Made by a program: the position numbers and the translations under genes
IMG/VR virus record: IMGVR_UViG_3300045885_000359
Coordinates: 1-47,103 of that record
Length of the DNA stretch: 47,103 bases
Direction: 5' to 3' (one strand)
Source of the DNA: a virus
The notes under the pieces: generated by a model
Told to the model about the DNA's origin: nothing
Database searches by the model: none
The model's input: only the letters and a program-made list of their open reading frames with translations
In this document: positions 3,354 to 34,768 of the stretch, piece after piece
Layout of the letters: every line of letters starts with the position of its first letter
Numbering within the stretch: position 1 is the first letter of the stretch

Positions 3354-4925
3354 ATGCCCAAGCTCAAGGCGCTCAAGCGCTACCGGGCCTTCGACTTCTC
3401 GGGCGGGCTCGATAACCACACGAGCCCGACGATCCTGGCCTACGCCCAGGACAACCGCTTCCTCACGCAGGCGGACAACCTGCTCTACGTCCCGTCGGGC
3501 GGGGTCGCCAAGCGCCGCGACAGCGTGAACGCCAACACCACCAGCCTCGGCGCGAACGTGGCGATCACGGGCGGGCGCGAGCTCCGGCAATCGACGGGCA
3601 CCGACCGCGTGATCGTGGGCACCACCGACGGCCGGCTCGTGCGGATCGACACCGACGGCACCACCACGAACCTCGCGACCGGGCTCTCGACGGGCAGCGG
3701 CGTCCGCTGGAGCTTCGATCAGTACAACGACCTGCTCATCTGCTGCAACGGCGTCGATGCCCCGCGCAAGACGGATGGCACCCCGGGCGGCACGGCGCTG
3801 CTCGGCGGCTCGCCGCCCACCACCGCGCGCAAGGTGCTCGTGCATCGCAATCACGTGCTGCTCTTCGACGCGACCAATCCCTCACGGCTCACGATCTCTG
3901 CGACGGACAACCCCGAGGACTACACGACGGCGAACGACGCGGCGACCATCCTCGTCGACCTGAAGGACGGCATGGGACCGCTGACCGACATGGTGTCGCT
4001 CACGACGGGCGAGGCCATCCTGTGGAAGGACTACAGCGTTCATCGCCTGCAGGGCTCGGGGTTCTCGACGTGGACGCGCGTCCCGCAATCCTCGAGTGTG
4101 GGCTGTCAGTCCCTGGCCGGCGCCTGCTCGGCGGGCACCGAGGCGTTCTGGGTCGCGCCGGAAGGCGTCTACGCGCTCAGCGGCGTGACGGAGTTCGGCG
4201 ACTTCGTGCCGCGCTTGATCTCGGACCCCATCGAGCAATATTTCATGCCCGACGAGGCCGAGGCGCTGACCTTCGTGTCGTTCGACACCGCCGTGACCTG
4301 TTTCGATCGCCATCGCCGGCTGCTCTTCTTCGCGATGGATTCGGACGGCGACGGGCTGAACGACATCCTGCTCGTCTACAGCCTGCTCCTGAAAGCCTGG
4401 AGCGTCTGGCCGACGCGGACCGACACGACGAAGTGGGGCATCGCGTCGCTGTGGCTCGTTAGGAATTCTGCCACCGGCGTGCAGGAGCTCTACGCCGGCG
4501 GCTACGACGGCTTCGTGCGGATCCTGCACAGGGAGAGCACGAACCCGATTACGGCGACCTTCAAGCACCTGACCACGCTGGGAGAACCCGGCACGGAGAA
4601 GTCGCTGCGCCGGCTCTACCTCTACTTCGACGCCGAGACGGCGACGACGCTGCGCGTGACGACCGAATTCGATTTCGGAGCCTCGGGCGGGCAGACGTAC
4701 GTCCTGGACCTGGCCGATCCGGAATCGCACCTGCTCGGCCTTACCTGGGTCCTGGGCGTGGATCCGCTCGGCGGCAAGACGCGCGTCATCAAGCGCATCG
4801 ACACGCGCGGCCTGGGCGACGTGATCGGCCTCACTCTGGAAGGGCTCGGCGCGAGCGAGCCGTGGACGTTTCTAGGCTATGAGGCGCACTACCGTGAGCG
4901 GCGCATCATCCGGCGAGGAGATTAG
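3354..4925 (+). CDS. Tail nozzle / packaged-DNA stabilisation protein (P22 gp10-like, T7 gp12-like)
   Basis: A 523-residue protein. The N-terminus (FDFSGGLDNHTSP... LYVPSGGVAKRR) matches the usual opening of podovirus stabilisation or tubular B proteins: a GG turn, then a PSGG-KRR stretch. The remainder alternates short beta strands with Gly/Asp turns over about 350 residues, consistent with a beta-propeller. Length is close to that of known nozzle proteins. In known phages this protein closes the tail channel after packaging and attaches below the adaptor; the gene order fits that. Confidence 0.75.
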   Translation: MPKLKALKRYRAFDFSGGLDNHTSPTILAYAQDNRFLTQADNLLYVPSGGVAKRRDSVNANTTSLGANVAITGGRELRQSTGTDRVIVGTTDGRLVRIDTDGTTTNLATGLSTGSGVRWSFDQYNDLLICCNGVDAPRKTDGTPGGTALLGGSPPTTARKVLVHRNHVLLFDATNPSRLTISATDNPEDYTTANDAATILVDLKDGMGPLTDMVSLTTGEAILWKDYSVHRLQGSGFSTWTRVPQSSSVGCQSLAGACSAGTEAFWVAPEGVYALSGVTEFGDFVPRLISDPIEQYFMPDEAEALTFVSFDTAVTCFDRHRRLLFFAMDSDGDGLNDILLVYSLLLKAWSVWPTRTDTTKWGIASLWLVRNSATGVQELYAGGYDGFVRILHRESTNPITATFKHLTTLGEPGTEKSLRRLYLYFDAETATTLRVTTEFDFGASGGQTYVLDLADPESHLLGLTWVLGVDPLGGKTRVIKRIDTRGLGDVIGLTLEGLGASEPWTFLGYEAHYRERRIIRRGD

Positions 4926-5618
4926 ATGGCAAGCCTGGTGACCCTGGTGGACGGCACCATCCCGCTCGCAGCGCACTTCAATGGCAATTTCCAGGCGCTC
5001 AACAACGAGACGCGCCCGGTGACGACGGGCGGCACCGGGCTGTCCACCATCGCGGCCGGCGAGCTGTTGTACGGCTCCGCAGCCAACGTGATGGCGCGGC
5101 TCGGCGCCGGCCTGGCCACGCAGGTGCTCCGGGGCGGCAGCGTGCCGTCGTGGGTCGCGCTGTCCAGCACGCTGCTGGCGGTGAGTGACGCGGAAGCCAC
5201 GACCACGTCGGCGTCCATCACCACGCTCAAGACGATCTCGTCGCTGAGCGTCCCGTCCACCTCGGCGCTGCTGGTGCTGTTCGGGTTCCGCAAGAACAAC
5301 GCGGCGGCCGACTCGATGCTCATGGACGTACGCGTCAACGGCACCACCAATGTCGCGGAGGCCACGGTGCTCGCCTCCACGGCCTCCAACGAAGCCGGGC
5401 TGTCGGTGCTGTTCATCGGTCCGCGCGCGACGAATTACGCCCAGGCGATCGTCTGGCTGATCGCGTCCGCGGCGGGCGCCGGCACGGGGCTGATCCGCGG
5501 CGCGACGATCTCCCTGGCCACGACCATCACGTCGATCGACCTGCGCGGACGCAACACGGGCGGCGTCATCACGGTGGGGGCGGCCAACGTGCGCGTCTTC
5601 GAGCTGCTGGGGGTCTGA
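4926..5618 (+). CDS. Tail fibre / spike-like protein
   Basis: A 230-residue protein. The N-terminus (VDGTIPLAAHFNGNFQALNN) and the stretch GGTGLSTIAAGELLYGSA, followed by a QVLRGG..PSW segment, are typical of short tail-fibre proteins. In those, such segments form the shaft before a receptor-facing domain. The C-terminal 130 residues are small, hydrophobic and beta-rich, ending in FELLGV. Its stop overlaps the start of the giant tail protein (TGATG), suggesting coordinated synthesis. Receptor type cannot be read from the sequence. Confidence 0.65.
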   Translation: MASLVTLVDGTIPLAAHFNGNFQALNNETRPVTTGGTGLSTIAAGELLYGSAANVMARLGAGLATQVLRGGSVPSWVALSSTLLAVSDAEATTTSASITTLKTISSLSVPSTSALLVLFGFRKNNAAADSMLMDVRVNGTTNVAEATVLASTASNEAGLSVLFIGPRATNYAQAIVWLIASAAGAGTGLIRGATISLATTITSIDLRGRNTGGVITVGAANVRVFELLGV

Positions 5619-8428
5619 TGGGCTTCGGGTACTACATCGGCTTCTACGCGTCCGGCGTGAAGGGCACGCAGCTCTGGAATCGCTACCACCGTGAGATCAC
5701 GCGCTTCGAGGCCCCGCGCGCGCCGCGCGTGGAACAGGCGTGGCTTGGTAGCGTGGAAGAAACGCCGATCGTGGTCTATCCCTACCGGCCGGACAAGCCA
5801 CCTCCCACGACGGCTAACGTGCCGCCGCACGGCTATCCGGAATTCAGGTTCCTCGTCGGCATCGAGGATCGCCTGGAGGTGGCCTCGGACTGGATCGCGG
5901 GCCCGGCACCGTGGGCGGCCACGATCGACTGGTCGCAGTTCACCGTGCAGGGCTATTCCACGGTGCTGTGGGGCGAGGCGCGCTGGCCGGCGGGCGTCGA
6001 CGGCCCGCCGGTGTGCGTGCTGGGAGAACCGATCGCACTCGAGGGCCAGGGCGATATCAACCGGCCGCAGTGGTTGTGGAACGTCGTGACGAAGTATGAA
6101 GTCAACGGCGCGCCCTTGATCGAGACGACCGACCGCCCGGTGCCGGTGTTCTGGCCCGGTGGCTTGCTCGCGCATGTCCACCGTCCGCTGCTGCCGCGCG
6201 TGACCTTGCCGATCGACACCACGCAGCCGGACACCCTGGAAGTGGATCGCATGGCGTGGGCGTGGCATCACGGGATGCCGCTGTACGCCGCCGCCGACAG
6301 CCAGGATCGCCTCGGGATCTGGGTGCGGCAGCACTATTACGACGCGGATCTCGAAACCCAGAAAACCTTGATGACCGATGGCTGCCGGCAGCACTGCGTG
6401 ATTCATCATCAGTGGCCGAGCAGCAGCGGCGCGTGGCACAACGGCTGGTTCTGGTTCCTCGAAACCCGCGGGCGCTTTGGTTACACGGACGTGGAGCAGG
6501 GACTTTCGCGCACGCTCGTGGGGTGGCGCACGCGGAGCAACGGCCCGCACCTCTACTGGGACGAGTGGCACAACGAGCGCGTGGAAGTGATGTCGCCGGC
6601 CGAGCAGCAGGAACACGACAAGGCGATGTCGCGCCTGGAGCTCTGCGGCACGTGGCTCGATTGCAAGCCGGGGCTGAGCGAGCCGTGGGGCACGTGGGTG
6701 GGCCCGGCGTCGGTGCTCCTCGCCGATGCCGCCGAGGACCAGGAGATCGGGCTGATCGTCGACACCTTGCATCACCGCATCCTGATCGTCGGACCGTGGA
6801 GGCAGGCGGACTTTACCGACTACGACGACGAGACGGTCGCCGACACGCCGGTCCGCACCTGGTGTGGCGATCCCTGGGGCGCGGAGGGGAACGAAGACGG
6901 CGAGGGCGCGCAGGCGCGCTTCCGTGAGCCGTGGGACATCCTGCAGCACAGCAACGGGAAGTTTTACGCGACGATCACCGTCTCCGGCCGCCTGGTGGAG
7001 ATCGTTCCGAATCGCCTGGCCGGCACGGGGATCGTGCGGACGATCTTTCAGTCGCGCACCGACTCCGGCGCACCGTTCGAGCCTACCGACGCCCAGCTCC
7101 GCGTCGGCGGAGCCACCACGGACCGTCAAGCACTCGGCCAGCGCGGCAAGGTCTCGAAGCTGCCGCCCGAGGTGCTGCGCGCGATGGTGCGCCCGGGCCC
7201 GTTCTCGAACGCGAGCGTCCTGCGCCCCCAGGGGCTCACCGAGCTGTCCGATGGTCGCCTGATGGCCTCGGGCTTTCACGTGTGGGATTCGTACGGGTTC
7301 GATCTCGCGATGGAGCAGGTGACCAAGGCGTTCGACCTCGATTTCTCCCCCGATCCCGATGCCGAAGTGGGCACGCGAGTGTTCAGCGGCATCTCGTTCG
7401 TGGCCGATCGCCGCGCCAAGGTCGGCCCCGTCGATTCGATCGCGACCGGGGCCTGGCAGTCGAACACCGGGCGCTGGTGGCGCCCGCAGGGCGACACGTG
7501 GGTGAACAGCGGGCCGATCATCCGCACGCGCCCGAATATCGGGACCAAGCGGATGCTCGATGGCCCCGCCAATCGCCTGCCGGATCCGGCGTACCCGATC
7601 GCCGTGAGCATCAACCATCAGGACGTGGGCCCGCAGGGCTTCATCTTCCACGCGGCGAACGTGCCGTGGATGATCTACGTCCGCTCGCGCAACGACCAGG
7701 ATCGCATCTGGACCGATGCCGAGTTCGAGGCCATCGAGCGCGGGCAGTGGATCTTCGGGAACGGCACCAGCCTGAGCGAGCCCACCTACCATCGCCCGAG
7801 CTGGTTGAAGTTCTACGGGCCCGACTTCACGAACTACATCGGGCCGACGGCGATGGACCTCTGGATGAAGCACGCCATCGACGAGCGCGGGCTGGAGATC
7901 GACCGCGCGGCCCTGGCCGAGGAGATCCGTGCGGGCTGGGGCACCGGGGTGCCGCGCCCGGAGCTGACCGACGAGGACATCGAGGACCTGATCCTGTTCC
8001 TCGATAGCCGGGCGAACGCTTACAAGTACGGGCCGCCCATCGGCACCGTGGTCGAGCCGCCCGAGGTCGCCGAGGTGACCGGCAGCATTACCGTGAGCCT
8101 GGTGCCCGACGCGCGGCACGCGGGCGAGCGACATATAGGCTGGGCGTGGTACGTCAACGACGAGCGGCGCGCGGTGACGACGCTACCGCAGTGGACCGTG
8201 CAGCTCTCGGCGGGCACGTCGCGGATCGAGGTGAGTACGGTTGACGATACGGAGGGCGAGTCGGTGCGAACCCCGGTCGGGCTGGTGACGTGTAGCCCCC
8301 CGGGCCAGCGCGGCGGGAGGCGAGTGCGTGGGCGGTGGGCGAGTGGCGTTCTTCGTGATGATCGCGGCCGCGTTGCTCGCGGGCGTCGTGGGTGTCTATC
8401 TCATGCTCCGGTAAGGACCAACGAATGA
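5618..8428 (+). CDS. Very large tail protein with NHL-like propeller segment
   Basis: A 936-residue reading frame rich in Trp, His, Tyr and Pro. Residues about 375-465 look like NHL-type beta-propeller blades (GEGAQARFREPWDIL... GRLVEIVPN), a fold often used for binding sugars or proteins. Residues about 720-800 contain a helical segment (ELTDEDIEDLILFLDS) that resembles the last helix of cytochrome c domains, but no CxxCH is present. The tail after about residue 890 becomes Arg-rich with weak third-position GC and may be run-on past the real functional end. ATGA overlap with the next start at 8425. Probably an adhesin or receptor-binding protein; alternative: a virion enzyme of unknown type. 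Confidence 0.6.
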   Translation: MGFGYYIGFYASGVKGTQLWNRYHREITRFEAPRAPRVEQAWLGSVEETPIVVYPYRPDKPPPTTANVPPHGYPEFRFLVGIEDRLEVASDWIAGPAPWAATIDWSQFTVQGYSTVLWGEARWPAGVDGPPVCVLGEPIALEGQGDINRPQWLWNVVTKYEVNGAPLIETTDRPVPVFWPGGLLAHVHRPLLPRVTLPIDTTQPDTLEVDRMAWAWHHGMPLYAAADSQDRLGIWVRQHYYDADLETQKTLMTDGCRQHCVIHHQWPSSSGAWHNGWFWFLETRGRFGYTDVEQGLSRTLVGWRTRSNGPHLYWDEWHNERVEVMSPAEQQEHDKAMSRLELCGTWLDCKPGLSEPWGTWVGPASVLLADAAEDQEIGLIVDTLHHRILIVGPWRQADFTDYDDETVADTPVRTWCGDPWGAEGNEDGEGAQARFREPWDILQHSNGKFYATITVSGRLVEIVPNRLAGTGIVRTIFQSRTDSGAPFEPTDAQLRVGGATTDRQALGQRGKVSKLPPEVLRAMVRPGPFSNASVLRPQGLTELSDGRLMASGFHVWDSYGFDLAMEQVTKAFDLDFSPDPDAEVGTRVFSGISFVADRRAKVGPVDSIATGAWQSNTGRWWRPQGDTWVNSGPIIRTRPNIGTKRMLDGPANRLPDPAYPIAVSINHQDVGPQGFIFHAANVPWMIYVRSRNDQDRIWTDAEFEAIERGQWIFGNGTSLSEPTYHRPSWLKFYGPDFTNYIGPTAMDLWMKHAIDERGLEIDRAALAEEIRAGWGTGVPRPELTDEDIEDLILFLDSRANAYKYGPPIGTVVEPPEVAEVTGSITVSLVPDARHAGERHIGWAWYVNDERRAVTTLPQWTVQLSAGTSRIEVSTVDDTEGESVRTPVGLVTCSPPGQRGGRRVRGRWASGVLRDDRGRVARGRRGCLSHAPVRTNE
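8328..8414 (+). CDS. 28-residue membrane peptide nested in the large tail gene
   Basis: GTG 8328 follows a GGGAGG sequence by seven bases and opens a frame of 28 codons ending at TAA 8412. Residues 7-26 form one continuous hydrophobic helix with a Gly/Ala face, ending in LMLR. This frame has strong GC at third codon positions, whereas the overlapping tail-protein frame loses it here. A single-pass phage membrane peptide is the likely product. It could be a small holin-like or accessory lysis peptide; that role is inferred only. Confidence 0.5.
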   Translation: MGGGRVAFFVMIAAALLAGVVGVYLMLR

Positions 8429-8781
8429 CGACGGTGCGACGGGCCTTTCTCGATAGCACGCTCCTGCGGTGGTACGTGACCGGGGAGGGCGTGCCGGAAG
8501 ACGTTCACCGGCAGGAGCTCGCCGAGGCGCTGCACGTCGCGCCGGCGCGGCTCTCCTTCGAGACGCGCGAGGTGGAGGACGGCGAATACCTCGCGAAGGT
8601 GATCGACGTGATTCAGAGCGATGGCCAGCCGCTGCCGCCGCCGCCGCCCACCATCGAGCAGCAGCGCAAGGACGCGCTCGACACGTTGATCGGGGTCCTC
8701 GCTGCGGCAGGGGCCGATGCGACCTTGCCGCGACCGCTGCGGCAGGTGTGCGGGGCGCTTGGGGCATGGCTCAGGGTCTAG
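8425..8781 (+). CDS. Small unknown protein in the tail / internal-protein cluster
   Basis: A 118-residue protein. ATG 8425 is used because it has AAGGA seven bases upstream and an ATGA junction with the preceding stop; an upstream in-frame start at 8392 is less likely. It has a folded-looking first half, a PLPPPPPT linker (residues about 70-78) and a C-terminal helix that ends in LGAWLRV. It overlaps the next gene by 16 bases. Family not recognised. Confidence 0.6.
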   Translation: MTTVRRAFLDSTLLRWYVTGEGVPEDVHRQELAEALHVAPARLSFETREVEDGEYLAKVIDVIQSDGQPLPPPPPTIEQQRKDALDTLIGVLAAAGADATLPRPLRQVCGALGAWLRV

Positions 8782-19521: not shown

Positions 19522-19964
19522 GGACGAAGATGTTCGCCCTGTCGCCCGAGCTGGTGGCGCTGGTGGAACGGCGCCTCGAGCTCCGTTCCGAGCGGCGCTG
19601 GAAGAAGATGCTGTCGCGCCGCGAGCTGTCGATGAGCTGGAGGGAGATCAAGCGCGCGCTGCTCATGCGGGTGAAGGGCTGCGAGGTGTGCACCCTCTTC
19701 CCCCAGGGCCCGCTCGACGTGCACCACGTGGTCCGGCGCTCGCAGGGTGGCACCGACGACGCCGACTCGAATCTGACGGCGCTGTGCAGGTCCTGCCACG
19801 ACTGGACGGCCGCCGCGTTCTCGTCCTACCGCGGGCGCCTCGTCATCGAGCCCGCGTTCCCTGGATTCTTCCACTGGCGGGTGATGCGCGCGCCGTCGAA
19901 GACGGAGGCCCGGGCGGGGCGCTACGAGGTGCTGGCCAGCGGCATCACGAGGAAGCGGTCCTGA
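19518..19964 (+). CDS. HNH endonuclease
   Basis: A 148-residue protein. GTG 19518 overlaps the previous stop (GTGA); ATG 19530 is an alternative. A zinc-binding CEVC (residues about 55-58), then DVHHVVRRSQGGTDDADSN and LCRSCH (about 93-98) give the classic HNH/beta-beta-alpha-metal core. The C-terminal 50 residues are basic. Phage HNH proteins act as homing-type nicking enzymes, packaging helpers or DNA-processing enzymes. Its place inside a replication operon suggests the last, but it could be a free-standing homing endonuclease. Stop overlaps the next start (TGATG). Confidence 0.8.
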   Translation: MRTKMFALSPELVALVERRLELRSERRWKKMLSRRELSMSWREIKRALLMRVKGCEVCTLFPQGPLDVHHVVRRSQGGTDDADSNLTALCRSCHDWTAAAFSSYRGRLVIEPAFPGFFHWRVMRAPSKTEARAGRYEVLASGITRKRS

Positions 19965-20872
19965 TGCGCTGCCTGGTGAAAGAACCCGTGTTTCGGAGCC
20001 TGACTCGGGCTGGCCGGATCTGCCTGAGCGGGCTCATCGCGGTGCCCGGTGGGCTCACTAAGGAAGAGATCGCCTGGGCCTACGGACCGGCCGCCGAGGC
20101 TGCTATCGCAGAGCTGGAGTCCGCTGGCCTGGTAGAGCGGATCGGGGGGCAGATCCGGAAGAAGCGGTATTCCAGAATCATTCTGGAATGTTCCAAGAAT
20201 CATTCTGGAATATTCCAGAATGCTCAAAACGCTGGCGAGCCTGGCACGGACAGTGCTCCTACGCGCGCGCACGTCGAGTTAAAACTTAATACTAGGAAAA
20301 GCGCTACTAGGAAGAGTCAAAAGCAGGAAAAACAAGGATCGCTCTACGAGCGAGAGCAGGAGGGGGAGTCTGAGGGGGAACCGGTGAGGCATTTGCCACC
20401 GGTTTCGGCGCCAACTTTATATCTTAACGGCGCTGTTGAGTCCGCTCCGAAGGTAGGTCAGGAAATTCCCCCCGCCGCGGCTGAGTCCGTTTCTTCCAGC
20501 AAGGAGGAAATCCCCCCCGCCACGGCTGAGCCGGCCAAGGTGGAGCCGCCGAAGCTCGACACGAAGGCGGTGTTCACCGAGCACCAGAAGCTGTTCGAGG
20601 CGCTGGCCGGCTCGAAGCCGAAGCCGTACACCGGCAGGGACGCTGTCCTGATCGCGCCGGTGCTGCGCCAGTACGGGACCGAGCGGACGCTGGCGCTGCT
20701 GCAGAAGTTCTTCGAGAACGCGGACCAGTGGACGCACGAGCGCGGGTACACGATCGCGACGTTCGTCAGCCAGATCGATCGCCTGCTCATGAGCGAGACG
20801 AAACTGAAGCGTAAGCGCTACGACGGAGATCACCTGTTTGCAATCCCGCTACGCCGGAAATCACCTGTATGA
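19964..20872 (+). CDS. Replication initiator / helicase loader with internal origin
   Basis: A 302-residue protein. Residues about 12-70 look like a winged helix (GGLTKEEIAWAYGPAAEAAIAELESAGLVERI). Residues 70-200 are a polar low-complexity linker. Residues about 205-290 (AVFTEHQKLFEAL... HERGYTIATFVSQIDRLL) resemble the C-terminal domain of phage replication proteins that recruit DnaB. The gene is just upstream of a DnaB-type helicase gene and contains an iteron cluster, as in lambda O. Codons in the linker are noticeably AT-rich compared with the rest. The exact family (O, DnaD or DnaA-like) is undecided. Confidence 0.7.
   Translation: MRCLVKEPVFRSLTRAGRICLSGLIAVPGGLTKEEIAWAYGPAAEAAIAELESAGLVERIGGQIRKKRYSRIILECSKNHSGIFQNAQNAGEPGTDSAPTRAHVELKLNTRKSATRKSQKQEKQGSLYEREQEGESEGEPVRHLPPVSAPTLYLNGAVESAPKVGQEIPPAAAESVSSSKEEIPPATAEPAKVEPPKLDTKAVFTEHQKLFEALAGSKPKPYTGRDAVLIAPVLRQYGTERTLALLQKFFENADQWTHERGYTIATFVSQIDRLLMSETKLKRKRYDGDHLFAIPLRRKSPV
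20169..20340. other. Candidate replication origin: iterons plus AT-rich stretch
   Basis: Inside the initiator gene, AGAATCATTCTGGAAT occurs twice at a 22-bp interval (20174 and 20196). A perfect inverted repeat of ATTCCAGAAT spans 20169-20189, and ATTCTGGAAT plus ATTCCAGAAT form a perfect 20-bp palindrome at 20202-20221. About 55 bases further on, 20277-20340 is the most AT/purine-rich stretch nearby. Initiator-gene iterons followed by AT-rich DNA are the layout of lambdoid origins. Confidence 0.6.
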
Positions 20873-29136: not shown

Positions 29137-29538
29137 ATGCTGGTGAGTGAACCGGCAAAGATCGCCTGGCACCCAAGCAGCGGAAACCGTGGGAAGACGG
29201 CCAGGTGCCGCCGAAGCCGAAGCGCTGAGGCGCGGAACCGGAAGTTGAAGTCGACCACGAAACCGTGGCTGGTATGCTGGCAGCGGGTCGGCCGGCCGTT
29301 GATCGGGTCTGAGACGCCGGATAGCAAGGACGTGAAGCTCCGGAATCTGGGCGTGTGGGTGGGCCCGGCCCCGCTGGAGGGGGTCCAGCAGGGCCGGGAA
29401 GGGGTCAAAGTGGGGGGTCTGAGGCAGGGGGCCCAGGGGTTAACCTACCCCCCCCCGGCCCGGTTGTCGTCGTCCCATGCGATGACGAAGATCATGGCGA
29501 CTGACCGCTGGCTCCCTGCTGACACATGCGCTCGTTGA
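29137..29538 (+). CDS. Doubtful plus-strand frame
   Basis: A 133-codon frame with reasonable third-position GC but no Shine-Dalgarno. It ends inside a minus-strand gene. It contains KLRNLGVWV, resembling KLRDLGVWI at the end of the 27304 gene, which might indicate a decayed relative. The first half is Arg/Ser/Lys-rich. It is the only plus-strand candidate in the 29.05-29.49 kb stretch, which otherwise shows only a G-rich run followed by a C-rich run near 29400-29460. Confidence 0.25.
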   Translation: MLVSEPAKIAWHPSSGNRGKTARCRRSRSAEARNRKLKSTTKPWLVCWQRVGRPLIGSETPDSKDVKLRNLGVWVGPAPLEGVQQGREGVKVGGLRQGAQGLTYPPPARLSSSHAMTKIMATDRWLPADTCAR

Positions 29539-29647
29539 TGTCGGTCAGATGCTCCAGGATCGCCGTACGAAGCTTCTCCGGCGCCGTCTGGCGGTACGGC
29601 GGAAACAACGCGTAGTAGGCGGTGAGTCGGTCGGTGGTCTCTAGCAT
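29492..29647 (-). CDS. Small unknown protein at the end of the phosphatase operon
   Basis: A 51-residue protein starting at ATG 29647, with GGAGAA upstream. The longer upstream frame is Arg-rich shadow and rejected. The product is a soluble helical peptide (LTAYYALFPPYRQTAPEKLRTAILEHL). It is the last leftward gene of this operon. Function unknown. Confidence 0.5.
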   Translation of the reverse strand: MLETTDRLTAYYALFPPYRQTAPEKLRTAILEHLTDINERMCQQGASGQSP

Positions 29648-29733
29648 CGTTCGTTCTCCGGTTGATTGCGTTTGCTGCGTTCTGCCACCGCCGGCCCCAT
29701 GCCGGCGGTGGCGTAGCTCGTGAAGCGACGCTG

Positions 29734-30105
29734 CTAGGCGTTCTCCGGGGCGCCCGGGATCCCGCCGGGCGCGCTCACCAGGCAGAGTCGGAGATAGGCG
29801 GCTAGCTCGGGAGCGTAGACGCGCCACCGCAAGTCTTTTACGCGGATCCTGACGAAGTCTTGCTTCGGCTCCGTTTCCGGACGCATGGACAGTGGCGAGT
29901 AGGTCACCTGCTCGGGGGAAGCCAGGGAGTGAAGCGTTGGGGCCGCCCAGGAGATACCGGGCATTGCCGCGCATTCGCCCGCGAAGCCGTAGGTACGGTT
30001 GCCGGTGGGGCCGGCAATCTGGTAATGCAGCATGCCGGCGTAATACTTCGCGCGCGCCATCACGTACACGGTGCCTTTGCTACTGGTGACGAAGGTACTG
30101 TCCAT
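29734..30105 (-). CDS. Unknown 123-residue protein of the phosphatase operon
   Basis: Starts at ATG 30105, with GGGAGG seven bases upstream and a TAATG junction with the phosphatase stop. The product is mixed, with a YVMARAKYYAGMLHYQIAG segment and scattered aromatic residues. No motif or membrane segment is seen. The tight coupling suggests it works with the phosphatase or with the 642-residue protein upstream. Confidence 0.6.
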   Translation of the reverse strand: MDSTFVTSSKGTVYVMARAKYYAGMLHYQIAGPTGNRTYGFAGECAAMPGISWAAPTLHSLASPEQVTYSPLSMRPETEPKQDFVRIRVKDLRWRVYAPELAAYLRLCLVSAPGGIPGAPENA

Positions 30106-30989
30106 TACTTGCCTCCCGTGGTCGGGCATTCACTCCAGTGAAAGCCGTCCGCTTGCGAGCCGCACTTGTTACAGGTGACGCGCCAACCGTTCTCCCGCGC
30201 ACGGCGTAGCCGATCCTCGTTGGAGTGAGAGAGGTAGTCGCGCCGCGGTGGCGGAGTGTCTAGCAAGCCATCGAGCATCGGCCGGTTGATGCGCGGCAGG
30301 TCGAACGCGGGAGCCGCAATCGGAGTGAACATGGGGCGCGGCTCCGAGGTAACCGTCCGGCCGGTGATGTCCGCGATGTAGGTGACCTGCGACTTCGTCT
30401 CTACGACTTCGACACAGTAGTTGTTCCGTACCCACGCTACCGGGCATTCGTCCGCGGGGATTGCTCCCCAGAGTGACAGCATGATGGCGAGCGCGGTACC
30501 GGTACGACCGTGTCCACCATGGCACCCGACAAGCACGTCAAGGTGTCCGCGCTCGACCGCCAGTGACGCCAGATCATCGGTGAGCGCTTGCCACTGCTCC
30601 CTGGTGAGCGGCGCGACACCGCCGTCGGGCCAGACGATACGGACGGTGGCCATCGCCACCGCGCGTGCGAGCCGCGGTAGCTCGGCGCCGGTGATGGTGA
30701 TGGCAGGTTCGACGAGCCGCCCCACTAGATCAAGCACGACACCGCCGGGGATTGGCTTCGCGCCCGACGAGATACCTCCCGCGTAGAGCGCGAGCGTTGC
30801 GTCCGCGACACCAAGGTTGATGACATGCACGTTGCCCGTATGGCAGTCACGGGAGCGCTTGCCGGTGGGCGCCTTAGGCACGGTGTCCGCTCCAAACTCC
30901 GGTGGCGACTTCAGCGATCCCTTCGGCCTTGAGCGCGGCGAGCGCGGTGGCTCCGGGGGAGTGTTGTTGCTCTGGCTCTTCGATGACAT
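30105..30989 (-). CDS. Protein tyrosine / dual-specificity phosphatase-like enzyme with zinc knuckle
   Basis: A 294-residue protein. Residues 156-166 are CHGGHGRTGTA: the C-x5-R phosphate-binding loop with Cys156 nucleophile and Arg162, preceded by a beta strand (LDVLVG) as in PTP/DSP enzymes. Downstream NNYCVEVVETKSQVTYI (about 189-205) fits the usual R-x-x-YC...ET-x-Q-x-x-Y helix. The N-terminal 45 residues are a basic Pro/Ser linker. C273, C276 and C288 with a nearby His form a possible zinc knuckle. Its start lies 116 bases inside the upstream gene. The substrate may be phosphoprotein or nucleotide/RNA 5-prime phosphate. Confidence 0.75.
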   Translation of the reverse strand: MSSKSQSNNTPPEPPRSPRSRPKGSLKSPPEFGADTVPKAPTGKRSRDCHTGNVHVINLGVADATLALYAGGISSGAKPIPGGVVLDLVGRLVEPAITITGAELPRLARAVAMATVRIVWPDGGVAPLTREQWQALTDDLASLAVERGHLDVLVGCHGGHGRTGTALAIMLSLWGAIPADECPVAWVRNNYCVEVVETKSQVTYIADITGRTVTSEPRPMFTPIAAPAFDLPRINRPMLDGLLDTPPPRRDYLSHSNEDRLRRARENGWRVTCNKCGSQADGFHWSECPTTGGK

Positions 30990-32802
30990 GGTGCTTAACT
31001 CCCTTCACCGGCGGCTTTGCCGTCGGCTTTTCGGCGGTGAGATGTACGACGAGCGTCCGCTGACCCCATGCCAGCGGCGCGACGCGTACTTGCTCGCGCC
31101 ATTCGATGACGTTGCGGTGCGCGAGCGCACGCGGCATGTCGGTGTCGACCACGCGCTCGCGAGTAGTCGGCCAGAACCGTAGCGACTTTTCGACATCGCG
31201 CACCATGCGCTCGGCCAGGTTGAGCCAATGCTGCTCGCGCGTGAGCGCGGTAAGCTCCACCATCACGCATGCGGTGACCAAGGTGCGGCAGTAGTCAGCG
31301 CTCTGCTCGTCGGACATGGGCCACGGCACGTTCTCCCACCGCTCCGTAGCCGTGCACCAGGTGTCGCGGCAGTAGCCGAGCCAGCGGGAGAATGACGCGG
31401 GGAGCAAGAGCTTCCGGTCAGTGGTTGCCCACGTGAGCAGCGAGCCATCGCGCTTGGCATCGAGCAGGCGCTTGTAGGCGGCTTGATCGCCCAGCGAGAA
31501 GATGACGCGCTTGTCGAATGCGACACCGGAGTTATGCGACAGGTCGACTACCCGATCGATGTACATGTCCGCGGGGAGCGAGTAATACTCCGCGGCGTAG
31601 CTCGCGATGGTGGCCCACCGCGCGCCACCGTAGTTGCCTTTCCACATGCCGCGCTCAAATGCGACCTTCACCGCGGGGAGCGCTTGCCGGGGATCTAGCT
31701 CCACCGCGGCGCCGTAGGCGGCTTGCCGCGAATGCGGGAGCGGCGCCATCGGCTCGAAGCCATCATCACTCCGCATTGCCAGGTACACGTTGTGAGCAAG
31801 TGACGGGCAATGTCGGGCTTCTCCCACCGCAGCCGCGACGAGATAATCGAAGAGATTGCGCGCTAGCTCGGCATCGTAGGCGGCTTTCTCCTGGCGAAGC
31901 TCGGTGATGGTCAGGACATCGCGAAACGGAGCGCTCGCTGCCCACGTGTACGTGGTCACGGTGACCGTAAGCTCCGGGCAGTAGGGATTAGGGCGCGTTT
32001 CGCGGCCGCTCATTACCTCCCACCCCTTGTCGCGCGCCATCGCGGTGATGCGGCGTTCGATGTCGACATACACGTAATGCGTCAGGATCGCGGCGTAGAC
32101 ATCGCGCCGCGTGCCGCTCGACTCACCGAGCTTCACTAGCTCGGGGCCGGTGAGCGTTCCCGCGAGCGCGATGCCCGCGAGCGCGGTGATGTCCTGCGAC
32201 TTGCCGGGGAGCTTCGCCTTGAGCACCGGTGCAGCGTCGTTCGCCTTGAGCGTTCCCTTGGCGATGGCGTCCTTCCACGCCTGCTCGACAATGCCCGGCT
32301 TCGCGGCAGGCGCTGGCGGGAGCTTCGGCGCGTTGCCGTTGCTGACGCCAACGCTGCTCATGATGGCGGCGGGATCGGTCGACACTCCGTACATCGCGCA
32401 CGTGCATGGCGTGATTTCTTTCACCGCGGCATGCTTCGCTACCCAATCGTGCGCGCGGTAATGCCCGTGCGAGAGCACGAGCTTCGTCTTACTCCCGTAG
32501 CTCGCGGGATTGCCGAGCGCGAAGAATGCGGTGAGCAGGCGCAGCTCGCCGTGCCAGCAGAGCCGCCGCGATGGGTACGGCACCGGCCCCTTCGTCTTGT
32601 GCATCTTCGTTTGCACGGTGGCCCACGGGGCCTTCACCACCGTGCGTTCCAGGTTGAACGTGATGGCGTAGCGGCCGCTCTTGCGGAGCTTCACCGCTGA
32701 GACGTTCACCGGCTGCACGGGCGCGCTCGAAGGGAACGCGTGTGCGAGCGCATCGGTGAAGCCTTGCCATGCCGCGATTGCGTCGACGGCGACTAGGCGC
32801 AT
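30874..32802 (-). CDS. Large protein of unknown family, partner of the phosphatase
   Basis: A 642-residue protein. ATG 32802 is preferred because the promoter at 32913-32942 would start transcription near 32906, after the longer TTG start. No nuclease, ATPase or membrane motif is visible. Residues about 80-140 hold conserved-looking aromatic and His residues (LSHGHYRAHDW). Residues about 400-460 include ARWATIASYAAEYY and VVDLSHNSGVAFDK. Two copies of the dispersed motif lie in the gene (31331, 31819). Codon use is less extreme than in the virion genes, suggesting later acquisition. Overlap and shared promoter tie it to the phosphatase gene. Confidence 0.65.
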   Translation of the reverse strand: MRLVAVDAIAAWQGFTDALAHAFPSSAPVQPVNVSAVKLRKSGRYAITFNLERTVVKAPWATVQTKMHKTKGPVPYPSRRLCWHGELRLLTAFFALGNPASYGSKTKLVLSHGHYRAHDWVAKHAAVKEITPCTCAMYGVSTDPAAIMSSVGVSNGNAPKLPPAPAAKPGIVEQAWKDAIAKGTLKANDAAPVLKAKLPGKSQDITALAGIALAGTLTGPELVKLGESSGTRRDVYAAILTHYVYVDIERRITAMARDKGWEVMSGRETRPNPYCPELTVTVTTYTWAASAPFRDVLTITELRQEKAAYDAELARNLFDYLVAAAVGEARHCPSLAHNVYLAMRSDDGFEPMAPLPHSRQAAYGAAVELDPRQALPAVKVAFERGMWKGNYGGARWATIASYAAEYYSLPADMYIDRVVDLSHNSGVAFDKRVIFSLGDQAAYKRLLDAKRDGSLLTWATTDRKLLLPASFSRWLGYCRDTWCTATERWENVPWPMSDEQSADYCRTLVTACVMVELTALTREQHWLNLAERMVRDVEKSLRFWPTTRERVVDTDMPRALAHRNVIEWREQVRVAPLAWGQRTLVVHLTAEKPTAKPPVKGVKHHVIEEPEQQHSPGATALAALKAEGIAEVATGVWSGHRA

Positions 32803-32942: not shown

Positions 32943-33165
32943 TAGCTAACTCGCTACCAGGATGAGCAGGAACCGGAGAGCCAGGAAGCCGTTACCGGGG
33001 GGGAGCAAGCCACCAAAGAGAGCCGAGGTAACAAGGCGAGCCGAGCCGCGTTACCGCTCCCCCGTTACCGCCGCTCCCCGCCGTTTCCTGCCTCCCCGCC
33101 CCGAAGGGGCCGGCCCGTACCCCTACCAGGGAGAGCAGACAGGCAGCGTTACCTCACTGGGAGAA

Positions 33166-33360
33166 GCTAGCGAGCCAGGAGCAGGGAGCGCGACGAGCAG
33201 GCAACCGGGAGACGGGAGAAGCTAGCGAGCCAGGAGCGCTAGCGAGCGCGACGAGCAGGCAGTAGAGAGCTAGCGAGCCAGGAGCGCTAGCGAGCCAGGA
33301 GCGCTAGCGAGCCAGGAGCGCTAGCGAGCGCGACGAGCAGGCGCGACGAGCAGGCAGTAG
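33166..33360. repeat. Composite short-repeat array built on GCTAGCGAGCCAGGAGC
   Basis: The 17-bp unit GCTAGCGAGCCAGGAGC occurs at 33166, 33221, 33269, 33286 and 33303, the last three in perfect tandem. Between them a second unit, GCTAGCGAG followed by CGCGACGAGCAGG, recurs at 33237, 33320 and in part at 33190 and 33342. The 17-bp period breaks any reading frame, so the array is non-coding. It lies in a gap of more than 1 kb (32943-34016) that has no convincing gene and also holds several GTTACC/GGTAAC hexamers (32990-33155). Confidence 0.65.
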
Positions 33361-33698: not shown

Positions 33699-33927
33699 TA
33701 CAGAAACTCCACGCAGAACTTGCTAACGGTTACCTTTACAGAAACTCCACGCAGAACTTGCTAACGGTTACCTTTACAGAAACTCCACGCAGAACTTGCT
33801 AACGGTTACCTTTACAGAAACTCCACGCAGAACTTGCTAACGGTTACCTTCTTCCGCAGAGCTCGCCGCCCCTACAGAAACTCCACGCAGAACTGCTAAC
33901 GGTTACCTTCTTCCGCAGAGCTCGCCG
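33699..33927. repeat. Five-copy 38-bp tandem repeat
   Basis: Four identical 38-bp units start at 33699, 33737, 33775 and 33813. Each begins TACAGAAACTCC and ends CGGTTACCTT. A fifth copy at 33873 lacks one T. CTTCCGCAGAGCTCGCCG follows copies four and five (33851 and 33910), so the last unit was duplicated with its flank. There are no spacers, so this is not a CRISPR array. An AT-rich island (33537-33570) lies just upstream. Iteron-like or operator arrays look similar. Confidence 0.7.
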
Positions 33928-34595: not shown

Positions 34596-34768
34596 TGAGG
34601 AGGAGGCGGGGGCGCCCGAAAGGCGCTCGGACCGGCGGCACCAGGAGGATGCGCGGTGGACTGGAGCGGCCCCAGCGCGGGCCTCATAAGCCCGACCAGG
34701 CGGGTTCGACTCCCGCTCGCGCCACCAGGGCCGCCGTCAAGGCCGCGATCGCGATGTACCGGCCGTGA
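34592..34768 (+). CDS. 58-residue basic peptide with AT-hook-like start, overlapping the tRNA
   Basis: ATG 34592 overlaps the previous stop (ATGA), and its own stop overlaps the next start (GTGA). Both junctions match the genome style. The product is very basic, with RRRRGRPKG at the N-terminus, an AT-hook core. The whole tRNA-like gene lies inside this frame. It may be a real peptide or just an open path that couples translation between the neighbours. Confidence 0.4.
   Translation: MMRRRRGRPKGARTGGTRRMRGGLERPQRGPHKPDQAGSTPARATRAAVKAAIAMYRP
34650..34727 (+). tRNA. tRNA-like gene, anticodon CAU (Met or Ile2)
   Basis: The T arm GCGGG-TTCGACT-CCCGC (34700-34716) and the anticodon arm CGGGC-CTCATAA-GCCCG (34678-34694, anticodon CAT 34685-34687) are perfect. 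A five-base variable loop lies between them. CCA is encoded at the end. The acceptor TGCGCGG pairs with TCGCGCC in six of seven positions, with position 1 unpaired as in initiator tRNAs. The D arm is irregular: CTGG/CCAG can pair, but leaves two extra bases before the stem. Isotype cannot be settled by eye. Confidence 0.7.

What the first reader, a model, noticed from the sequence alone, without database searches (positions are those of the whole stretch)
29492..32802. Phosphatase cassette with a 642-residue protein of no recognised family
A leftward operon with its own promoter encodes a large unknown protein, a PTP/DSP-like enzyme with an intact C-x5-R loop and a zinc knuckle, and two small proteins. 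The phosphatase start lies 116 bases inside the large gene, so production is coupled. The cassette is separate from replication and virion genes and less extreme in codon use, like a lysogen-expressed accessory module (host-altering or superinfection-exclusion). This pairing is not one I know.
Basis: partly seen in the sequence, partly recalled or inferred. Interest (0 to 1): 0.7.

Follow-up and report, generated by a model that had tools for sequence, protein, structure and literature searches.

The report
Mobile phage phosphatase and partner-domain cassette
This phage carries a tyrosine-phosphatase-type enzyme beside a protein with an uncharacterised domain, and the pair recurs together in many otherwise unrelated phages, usually with a dikinase-like phosphate-transfer enzyme, so it looks like part of an undescribed viral system that puts phosphate on something and takes it off again.

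Summary
The pair is real: a 642-aa protein and a PTP-type phosphatase with intact WPD and C-x5-R motifs. Their pairing is close to a rule. Residues ~300-480 of the large protein form a distinct alpha-helical domain (PHROG 20946, function unknown), confidently modelled, with no PDB fold match. A phosphatase-based scan found the same domain nearby in 78 of 80 viral loci. In most loci the module is PPDK-like kinase / PTP / domain / PTP / extra gene, in isolated phages next to DNA polymerase. 27 of 28 sampled "PPDKs" have the ATP-binding and phospho-histidine domains but no PEP-binding domain. In one bacterial protein the unknown domain is fused directly after those two kinase domains; in a second protein type it follows a predicted ATP-grasp domain. 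I infer that it is the acceptor-side partner of a PPDK-like dikinase and that the phosphatase acts on the same substrate. The window holds a kinase-less version: several relatives share only this cassette with it, and the phage nearest by virion genes lacks it, so it moves as a unit. The 116-base overlap is probably a wrong start call (8 bases is likelier), the promoter match is at chance level, and nothing supports superinfection exclusion. The substrate is unknown.

The parts
30874..32802 (-). large protein, 642 aa; N-terminal ~300 aa of unknown fold, then PHROG 20946 domain, then a C-terminal tail
   Evidence: PHROG 20946 E 9e-13; relative L096 41% identical over 156 residues
31363..31905 (-). 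core domain, residues ~300-480
   Evidence: AlphaFold2 pLDDT mostly above 80, many blocks above 90; no PDB fold match at E<=0.001
31810..31821 (-). E328-x-R330-H331 motif
   Evidence: E328 invariant, R330/H331 at least 90% in 54 diverse members
31615..31629 (-). G392-G393-x-x-W396 motif
   Evidence: invariant in 54 members
31510..31536 (-). H423-N424-x-G426-x-x-F429-x-K431 motif
   Evidence: these residues invariant in 54 members
30105..30989 (-). PTP/DSP-type phosphatase, 294 aa from ATG 30989; likelier start GTG 30881 (258 aa)
   Evidence: PF22784 E 3e-7; profile matches solved phosphatases, best E 3e-16; start evidence
30504..30524 (-). phosphatase signature loop C156-x5-R162
   Evidence: C156, G159, G161, R162, T163, G164 invariant in the 13 aligned sequences; residues checked
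30624..30632 (-). W120-P121-D122, candidate general-acid loop
   Evidence: D122 at least 90% in the 13 aligned sequences; residues checked
30126..30173 (-). C-terminal CCHC cluster C273-x2-C276-x7-H284-x3-C288
   Evidence: sequence; zinc-ribbon-like clusters also occur in several related cassette proteins
29734..30129 (-). third gene, 131 aa, function unknown
   Evidence: weak match to the third gene of the related cassette L096 (E 0.002 for that one comparison); homology to the canonical module's extra gene inconclusive
29492..29647 (-). likely fourth gene, 51 aa
   Evidence: GGAG shortly upstream of its ATG, GC3 0.79 against 0.63 for the longer reading

Best explanation
The two genes are the core of a mobile phage phosphoryl-transfer module. 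In most relatives a PPDK-like dikinase is expected to move a phosphoryl group from ATP through a swivelling phospho-histidine domain to an acceptor. I propose that the PHROG 20946 domain binds and presents that acceptor, taking the place of the PEP/pyruvate domain, and that the adjacent PTP-type phosphatase removes phosphate from the same product or from a later intermediate. The window carries a compact version without a recognisable kinase, so the phosphate would come from a kinase supplied in trans (host, or a diverged phage gene) or the cassette would act on a phosphorylated host compound. Shown: the pairing, the phosphatase motifs, the kinase association and fusions, the missing PEP domain, and transfer between unrelated phages. 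Inferred: acceptor role, shared substrate, and the source of phosphate in the window.
For: 78 of 80 phosphatase-found viral loci contain the domain and 65 of 80 a PPDK-like kinase; by my reading of the contig names, 51 of these contigs had not already been found through the domain, and 49 of those have it. The canonical order occurs in 99 of the loci listed (not de-duplicated). 28 of 28 kinases have PPDK_N and PEP-utilizers, 1 has PEP-utilizers_C. Fusion PPDK_N + PEP-utilizers + domain in one 750-aa ORF. A second fused type: modelled with pLDDT 82 and pTM 0.79; its significant PDB matches are ATP-grasp enzymes, best E 9e-5, probability 1.00; invariant swivel-like His; one member hits PEP-utilizers weakly (E 0.017). 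L040 has a stand-alone His-swivel ORF beside the pair. L060, next to the window in the phosphatase tree (long branches), has a complete PPDK in the cassette. Precedent for dikinases with exchangeable or separate acceptor parts: rifampin phosphotransferase (PMC4844700) and two-component HpeHI (PMC12167813).
Against: No kinase was found in the window or in the near relative L096, so the core can exist without it. The window's N-terminal 300 aa resemble no kinase and model poorly. hhalign between the fused N-terminus and PPDK gave only P 0.03, on the His motif. The domain also occurs without kinase or phosphatase in some large bacterial and viral proteins. No substrate and no biochemical data. 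The PTPs could instead regulate the kinase.
Confidence: 0.5

Rival explanations
1. The phosphatase is a host-directed protein phosphatase and the large protein is its targeting or scaffold subunit; the cassette rewires host protein phosphorylation.
For: The phosphatase profile matches protein tyrosine and dual-specificity phosphatases; zinc clusters in cassette proteins could bind host partners.
Against: The domain has invariant E, H, N and K and nearly invariant R residues typical of a ligand or active site, and the recurrent PPDK-like kinase and fusions are unexplained.
Confidence: 0.17
2. The module acts on nucleotides or on phage nucleic acid: phosphorylation and dephosphorylation of a nucleotide, base adduct or nucleic-acid end during replication.
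For: In isolated phages the module lies just before DNA polymerase, with dcd or dUTPase nearby in some. Zinc-ribbon and KOW-like parts occur in some cassette proteins.
Against: No nucleobase-modifying enzyme is recognisable in the window cassette; the 'thymidylate synthase' label on relatives of the phosphatase is not backed by any thymidylate synthase Pfam match.
Confidence: 0.15
3. The PTPs regulate the PPDK-like enzyme, as plant PPDK is controlled by its regulatory protein, and the PHROG 20946 protein is an adaptor; the module tunes host carbon metabolism.
For: Two PTPs flank the domain gene beside the kinase in most loci; published papers read the kinase as a metabolic PPDK (PMC12038007).
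Against: 27 of 28 kinases lack the PEP/pyruvate domain, and the pair occurs without a kinase.
Confidence: 0.1
4. The window cassette is a decaying remnant of the full module and does nothing.
For: Kinase missing; the virion-gene relative does without the cassette.
Against: The conserved motif residues of both proteins are intact; the kinase-less form recurs in several lineages, and L096 keeps it at about 36-41% identity.
Confidence: 0.08

Closest known systems
Module of Vibrio phages J26 and VHS1, Stenotrophomonas Delepquintavirus, Rhodobacter RcZahn and Rhizobium RHph_Y1_11 (PPDK-like / PTP / PHROG 20946 / PTP / extra gene)
   Same: Same domain family next to the same phosphatase family, same order for the last two where a downstream PTP is present
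   Different: Those have a separate PPDK-like kinase, an upstream PTP, and no 300-aa N-terminus; the window has none of these. In the papers found they are described only as single annotated genes (PMC12038007, PMC7326821)
Small-molecule dikinases: rifampin phosphotransferase (PMC4844700) and two-component HpeHI (PMC12167813)
   Same: ATP-grasp plus His swivel with an exchangeable or separate acceptor part
   Different: Their acceptor domain is not shown to be related to PHROG 20946, and no PTP is reported with them in the passages read; the window lacks the kinase parts
Glucan water dikinase with SEX4/laforin phosphatase (own knowledge)
   Same: A PPDK-type dikinase opposed by a dual-specificity-type phosphatase on one substrate
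   Different: Analogy only; no glucan-binding part was seen
PTP-SAK family PF22784
   Same: The phosphatase matches above the curated cut-off
   Different: The match covers only 53 residues (127-179)

Membership tests
Cysteine-dependent PTP/DSP phosphatase | C-x5-R(S/T) signature loop | tested here: met
   C156-HGGHG-R162-T163, invariant in relatives
Cysteine-dependent PTP/DSP phosphatase | upstream general-acid Asp | tested here: met
   W120-P121-D122; D122 at least 90% conserved
Cysteine-dependent PTP/DSP phosphatase | phosphatase activity lost on C to S change | not testable with these tools
   needs an assay
PF22784 PTP-SAK | score above gathering cut-off | tested here: met
   31.1 against 27 bits
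PHROG 20946 | profile match with the conserved motifs | tested here: met
   E 9e-13; ExRH, GGxxW and HNxGxxFxK present
PPDK-like dikinase | ATP-grasp and His-swivel domains in the window | tested here: not met
   no PF00391 match in the record; no match to the phage PPDK profile; N-terminus not alignable
PPDK-like dikinase | module relatives carry ATP-grasp and His swivel | tested here: met
   28 of 28 kinases sampled; fused form L087
True pyruvate phosphate dikinase | PEP/pyruvate-binding domain PF02896 in the module kinases | tested here: not met
   1 of 28, only L060
Known anti-phage defence system | PADLOC model match | tested here: not met
   0 hits for eight cassette proteins
Superinfection exclusion or lysogenic conversion | expression in the lysogen and an exclusion phenotype | not testable with these tools
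   needs transcription data and plaque tests

The most novel reading that the evidence does not exclude
PHROG 20946 is a new fold and the acceptor or catalytic domain of an undescribed class of viral dikinases with an obligate opposing phosphatase, acting on a nucleotide, nucleic-acid or host metabolite target; the window carries a trans-fed, kinase-less form that is exchanged between phages.
Probability: 0.3. Interest if true: 0.8.

Novelty: new variant of a known kind. Interest (0 to 1): 0.58.

Why it matters
Phage 'PPDK' and 'tyrosine phosphatase' genes are annotated one by one, and the PPDK has been published as an auxiliary metabolic gene feeding glycolysis. The evidence here says that they belong to one module with an uncharacterised domain, that the pyruvate domain is almost always missing, and that the domain-phosphatase pair travels by itself between unrelated phages. 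That makes the metabolic reading doubtful and gives a directly testable question: what does this viral dikinase-phosphatase pair phosphorylate?

Tried and rejected
DNA-level search of the region in phages: no match. Plasmids: no match for the large protein. Close-relative scan of IMG/VR with the large protein alone: none confirmed. PADLOC: none. PDB sequence search with the domain profile: only two matches above E 0.2, taken as chance. PDB fold search with the 642-aa model: best E 1.2; the viral library's only good hits (4 at E<=0.001) are unnamed proteins of 326-478 aa, sizes that fit the family itself. Idea that the window's N-terminus is a diverged kinase: no support. Idea that the C-terminus of phage PPDKs is related to the domain: no. 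Idea that the 131-aa third gene belongs to the canonical module's extra gene family: the alignment falls in the right place but at P 0.02-0.08, inconclusive. Structures of the phosphatase itself were not predicted; both jobs went to the domain protein. A paper on the rhodanese-phosphatase superfamily that may discuss such enzymes is not held, so priority could not be checked there. The IMG/VR counts come from scans whose patterns were derived from module members, and loci are not de-duplicated by phage lineage.
Full report
OBSERVATION. The window is one IMG/VR virus record of 47,103 bases. Its recognisable genes include an integrase, a DnaB-type helicase, terminase, portal and major head protein, and its virion genes are nearest to those of a record labelled Podoviridae. 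The large ORF has no Pfam match, but residues 312-454 match PHROG 20946, unknown function, at E 9e-13. The phosphatase matches PF22784 above its cut-off, and a profile of its family finds 202 distinct PDB sequences at E<=0.001, best 3e-16; the 60 shown are phosphatases or phosphatase-family proteins. WPD, Cys156 and Arg162 are intact.

CORRECTIONS TO THE OBSERVATION. The 116-base overlap depends on an ATG at 30989. A GTG at 30881, preceded by GGAG, overlaps the large gene's stop by 8 nt. The nearest relative, L096, has an ATG in the corresponding place with a 14-nt overlap, and most family junctions are short. I favour the GTG, but this is not proven. The promoter-like site is one match where shuffles give 0.6. 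The 160-aa ORF is better read as a 51-aa gene.

RELATIVES OF THE LARGE PROTEIN. tblastn finds 35 phage records; the 20 listed all match within residues 281-492. Aligned with 53 other sequences, the domain keeps E328, G392, G393, W396, H423, N424, G426, F429, K431 and L447 invariant and R330, H331, Y320, D416 and L421 nearly so. AlphaFold2 models about residues 300-480 well and the first 230 and last 150 residues poorly. The model has no PDB fold match at E<=0.001.

THE PAIRING. In Vibrio, Stenotrophomonas, Rhodobacter and Rhizobium phages the domain protein stands directly next to one or two PTPs, behind a PPDK-like gene and, in most, shortly before DNA polymerase. A scan of viral contigs with the phosphatase family, which does not require the domain, gave 80 loci; 78 hold the domain and 65 a PPDK-like kinase. 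Of the two without the domain, L103 begins at the phosphatase, so nothing upstream can be seen. The order kinase-PTP-domain-PTP-extra gene occurs in 99 of the loci listed, duplicates included. In a phosphatase tree the copies upstream and downstream of the domain gene separate, with one exception, and the window's copy falls among the downstream ones with L096, L060 and L003 (98/92 support; branches are long, so its exact place is unsure).

MOBILITY. L096 lies in a 45-kb viral contig that shares with the window only the large protein (41% over 156 residues) and the phosphatase (36% over 201). The same holds for L060's and L065's contigs (for L065's contig 40.0 of 41.1 kb were compared). ctVRi840 shares only the phosphatase at that threshold, although it encodes a domain protein next to it. 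L043's contig also has a weak terminase match (40.0 of 43.2 kb compared). ctLwi270, nearest by capsid (48%), portal and terminase, has neither gene. So the cassette is exchanged independently of the virion genes.

THE KINASE LINK. All 28 module kinases sampled carry PPDK_N and the PEP-utilizers mobile (His) domain, and only L060's has the PEP-binding C-terminal domain. The published reading as a complete PPDK (PMC12038007, resting on a predicted structure) therefore gets no support from domain profiles in these sequences. In a Zambryskibacteria contig (L087) one 750-aa ORF runs PPDK_N, PEP-utilizers, PHROG 20946 domain, and its neighbours look chromosomal (by eye). A second fused type (L092, L058, L177, L178, L179 and the phage ctVRi840) showed TQK-x-x-G, VQLR-x-GP-like and a G/E-S-x-x-(S/D)H motif before the domain. 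The model of L092 (pLDDT 82, pTM 0.79) matches ATP-grasp enzymes in the PDB at best E 9e-5 and probability 1.00. The swivel part rests on the motif, an hhalign alignment at P 0.03 and a sub-threshold PEP-utilizers match in L179. L040 has a stand-alone His-swivel ORF beside the pair.

MECHANISM. In known dikinases the swivel domain carries phosphate from the ATP-grasp domain to a separate acceptor domain, which differs between families (rifampin phosphotransferase, PMC4844700) or sits with the swivel on another polypeptide (HpeHI, PMC12167813). The PHROG 20946 domain stands in that position in the fusions, and it is encoded beside kinases that lack their normal acceptor domain. I therefore infer that it is the acceptor-side partner and that the PTP opposes or completes the phosphorylation. 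Both steps are inference. The substrate is open: the place beside DNA polymerase, zinc-ribbon-like segments and a KOW match in one relative (L009) make nucleotides or nucleic acid plausible, but a small metabolite is equally possible.

THE WINDOW ITSELF. No PEP-utilizers or phage-PPDK match exists in the record, and none was found in L096's contig. The record shows no terminal repeat and may be incomplete, though structural genes run up to both ends. The N-terminal 300 residues have only L096 as a possible counterpart, by eye (C-x-H and C-x-C positions). The window therefore holds a kinase-less form, which also seems to occur in several other lineages, although a diverged kinase like that of the second fused type would be missed by those searches. 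How it is supplied with phosphate is not known.

VERDICT. A real, conserved and mobile module whose parts belong to known enzyme classes plus one uncharacterised domain. I found no description of the module in the papers searched, but one likely relevant paper was not available.

Noticed in passing
window 33699-33927: Four perfect 38-bp direct repeats followed by longer variants, in a stretch without clear genes between the cassette and the terminase genes; looks like iterons or a regulatory array.
   Followed up: no
window 33159-33355: Second, imperfect repeat array (GCTAGCGAGCCAGGAGC units) in the same stretch.
   Followed up: no
window 20168-20221: Tandem copies of a palindromic unit (TATTCCAGAATCATTCTGGAA) inside the 19688-20872 ORF, next to the DnaB-like helicase gene.
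   Followed up: no
window 34650-34727: tRNA-Met (CAT) gene just before the terminase genes.
   Followed up: no
L094 (Umezawaea endophytica) 4762-6957: PHROG 20946 domain fused to a cyclophilin-type peptidyl-prolyl isomerase domain in an actinobacterial genome.
   Followed up: no
L083, L086, L088, L090, L093: The domain also occurs in Patescibacteria contigs (Uhrbacteria and others), mostly in large proteins, without phosphatase or kinase nearby; of 198 genomes searched around L087's, only L087's own had it.
   Followed up: partly
phage 'PPDK' genes in L001-L012 and IMG/VR loci: Phage genes annotated as pyruvate phosphate dikinase, and their relatives, lack the PEP-binding domain in 27 of 28 cases, so the published metabolic interpretation is doubtful.
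   Followed up: yes
L009 (LR756511.1) 3566-8526: A 595-kb jumbo phage record has two consecutive large ORFs each with the domain, one followed by a KOW match.
   Followed up: no
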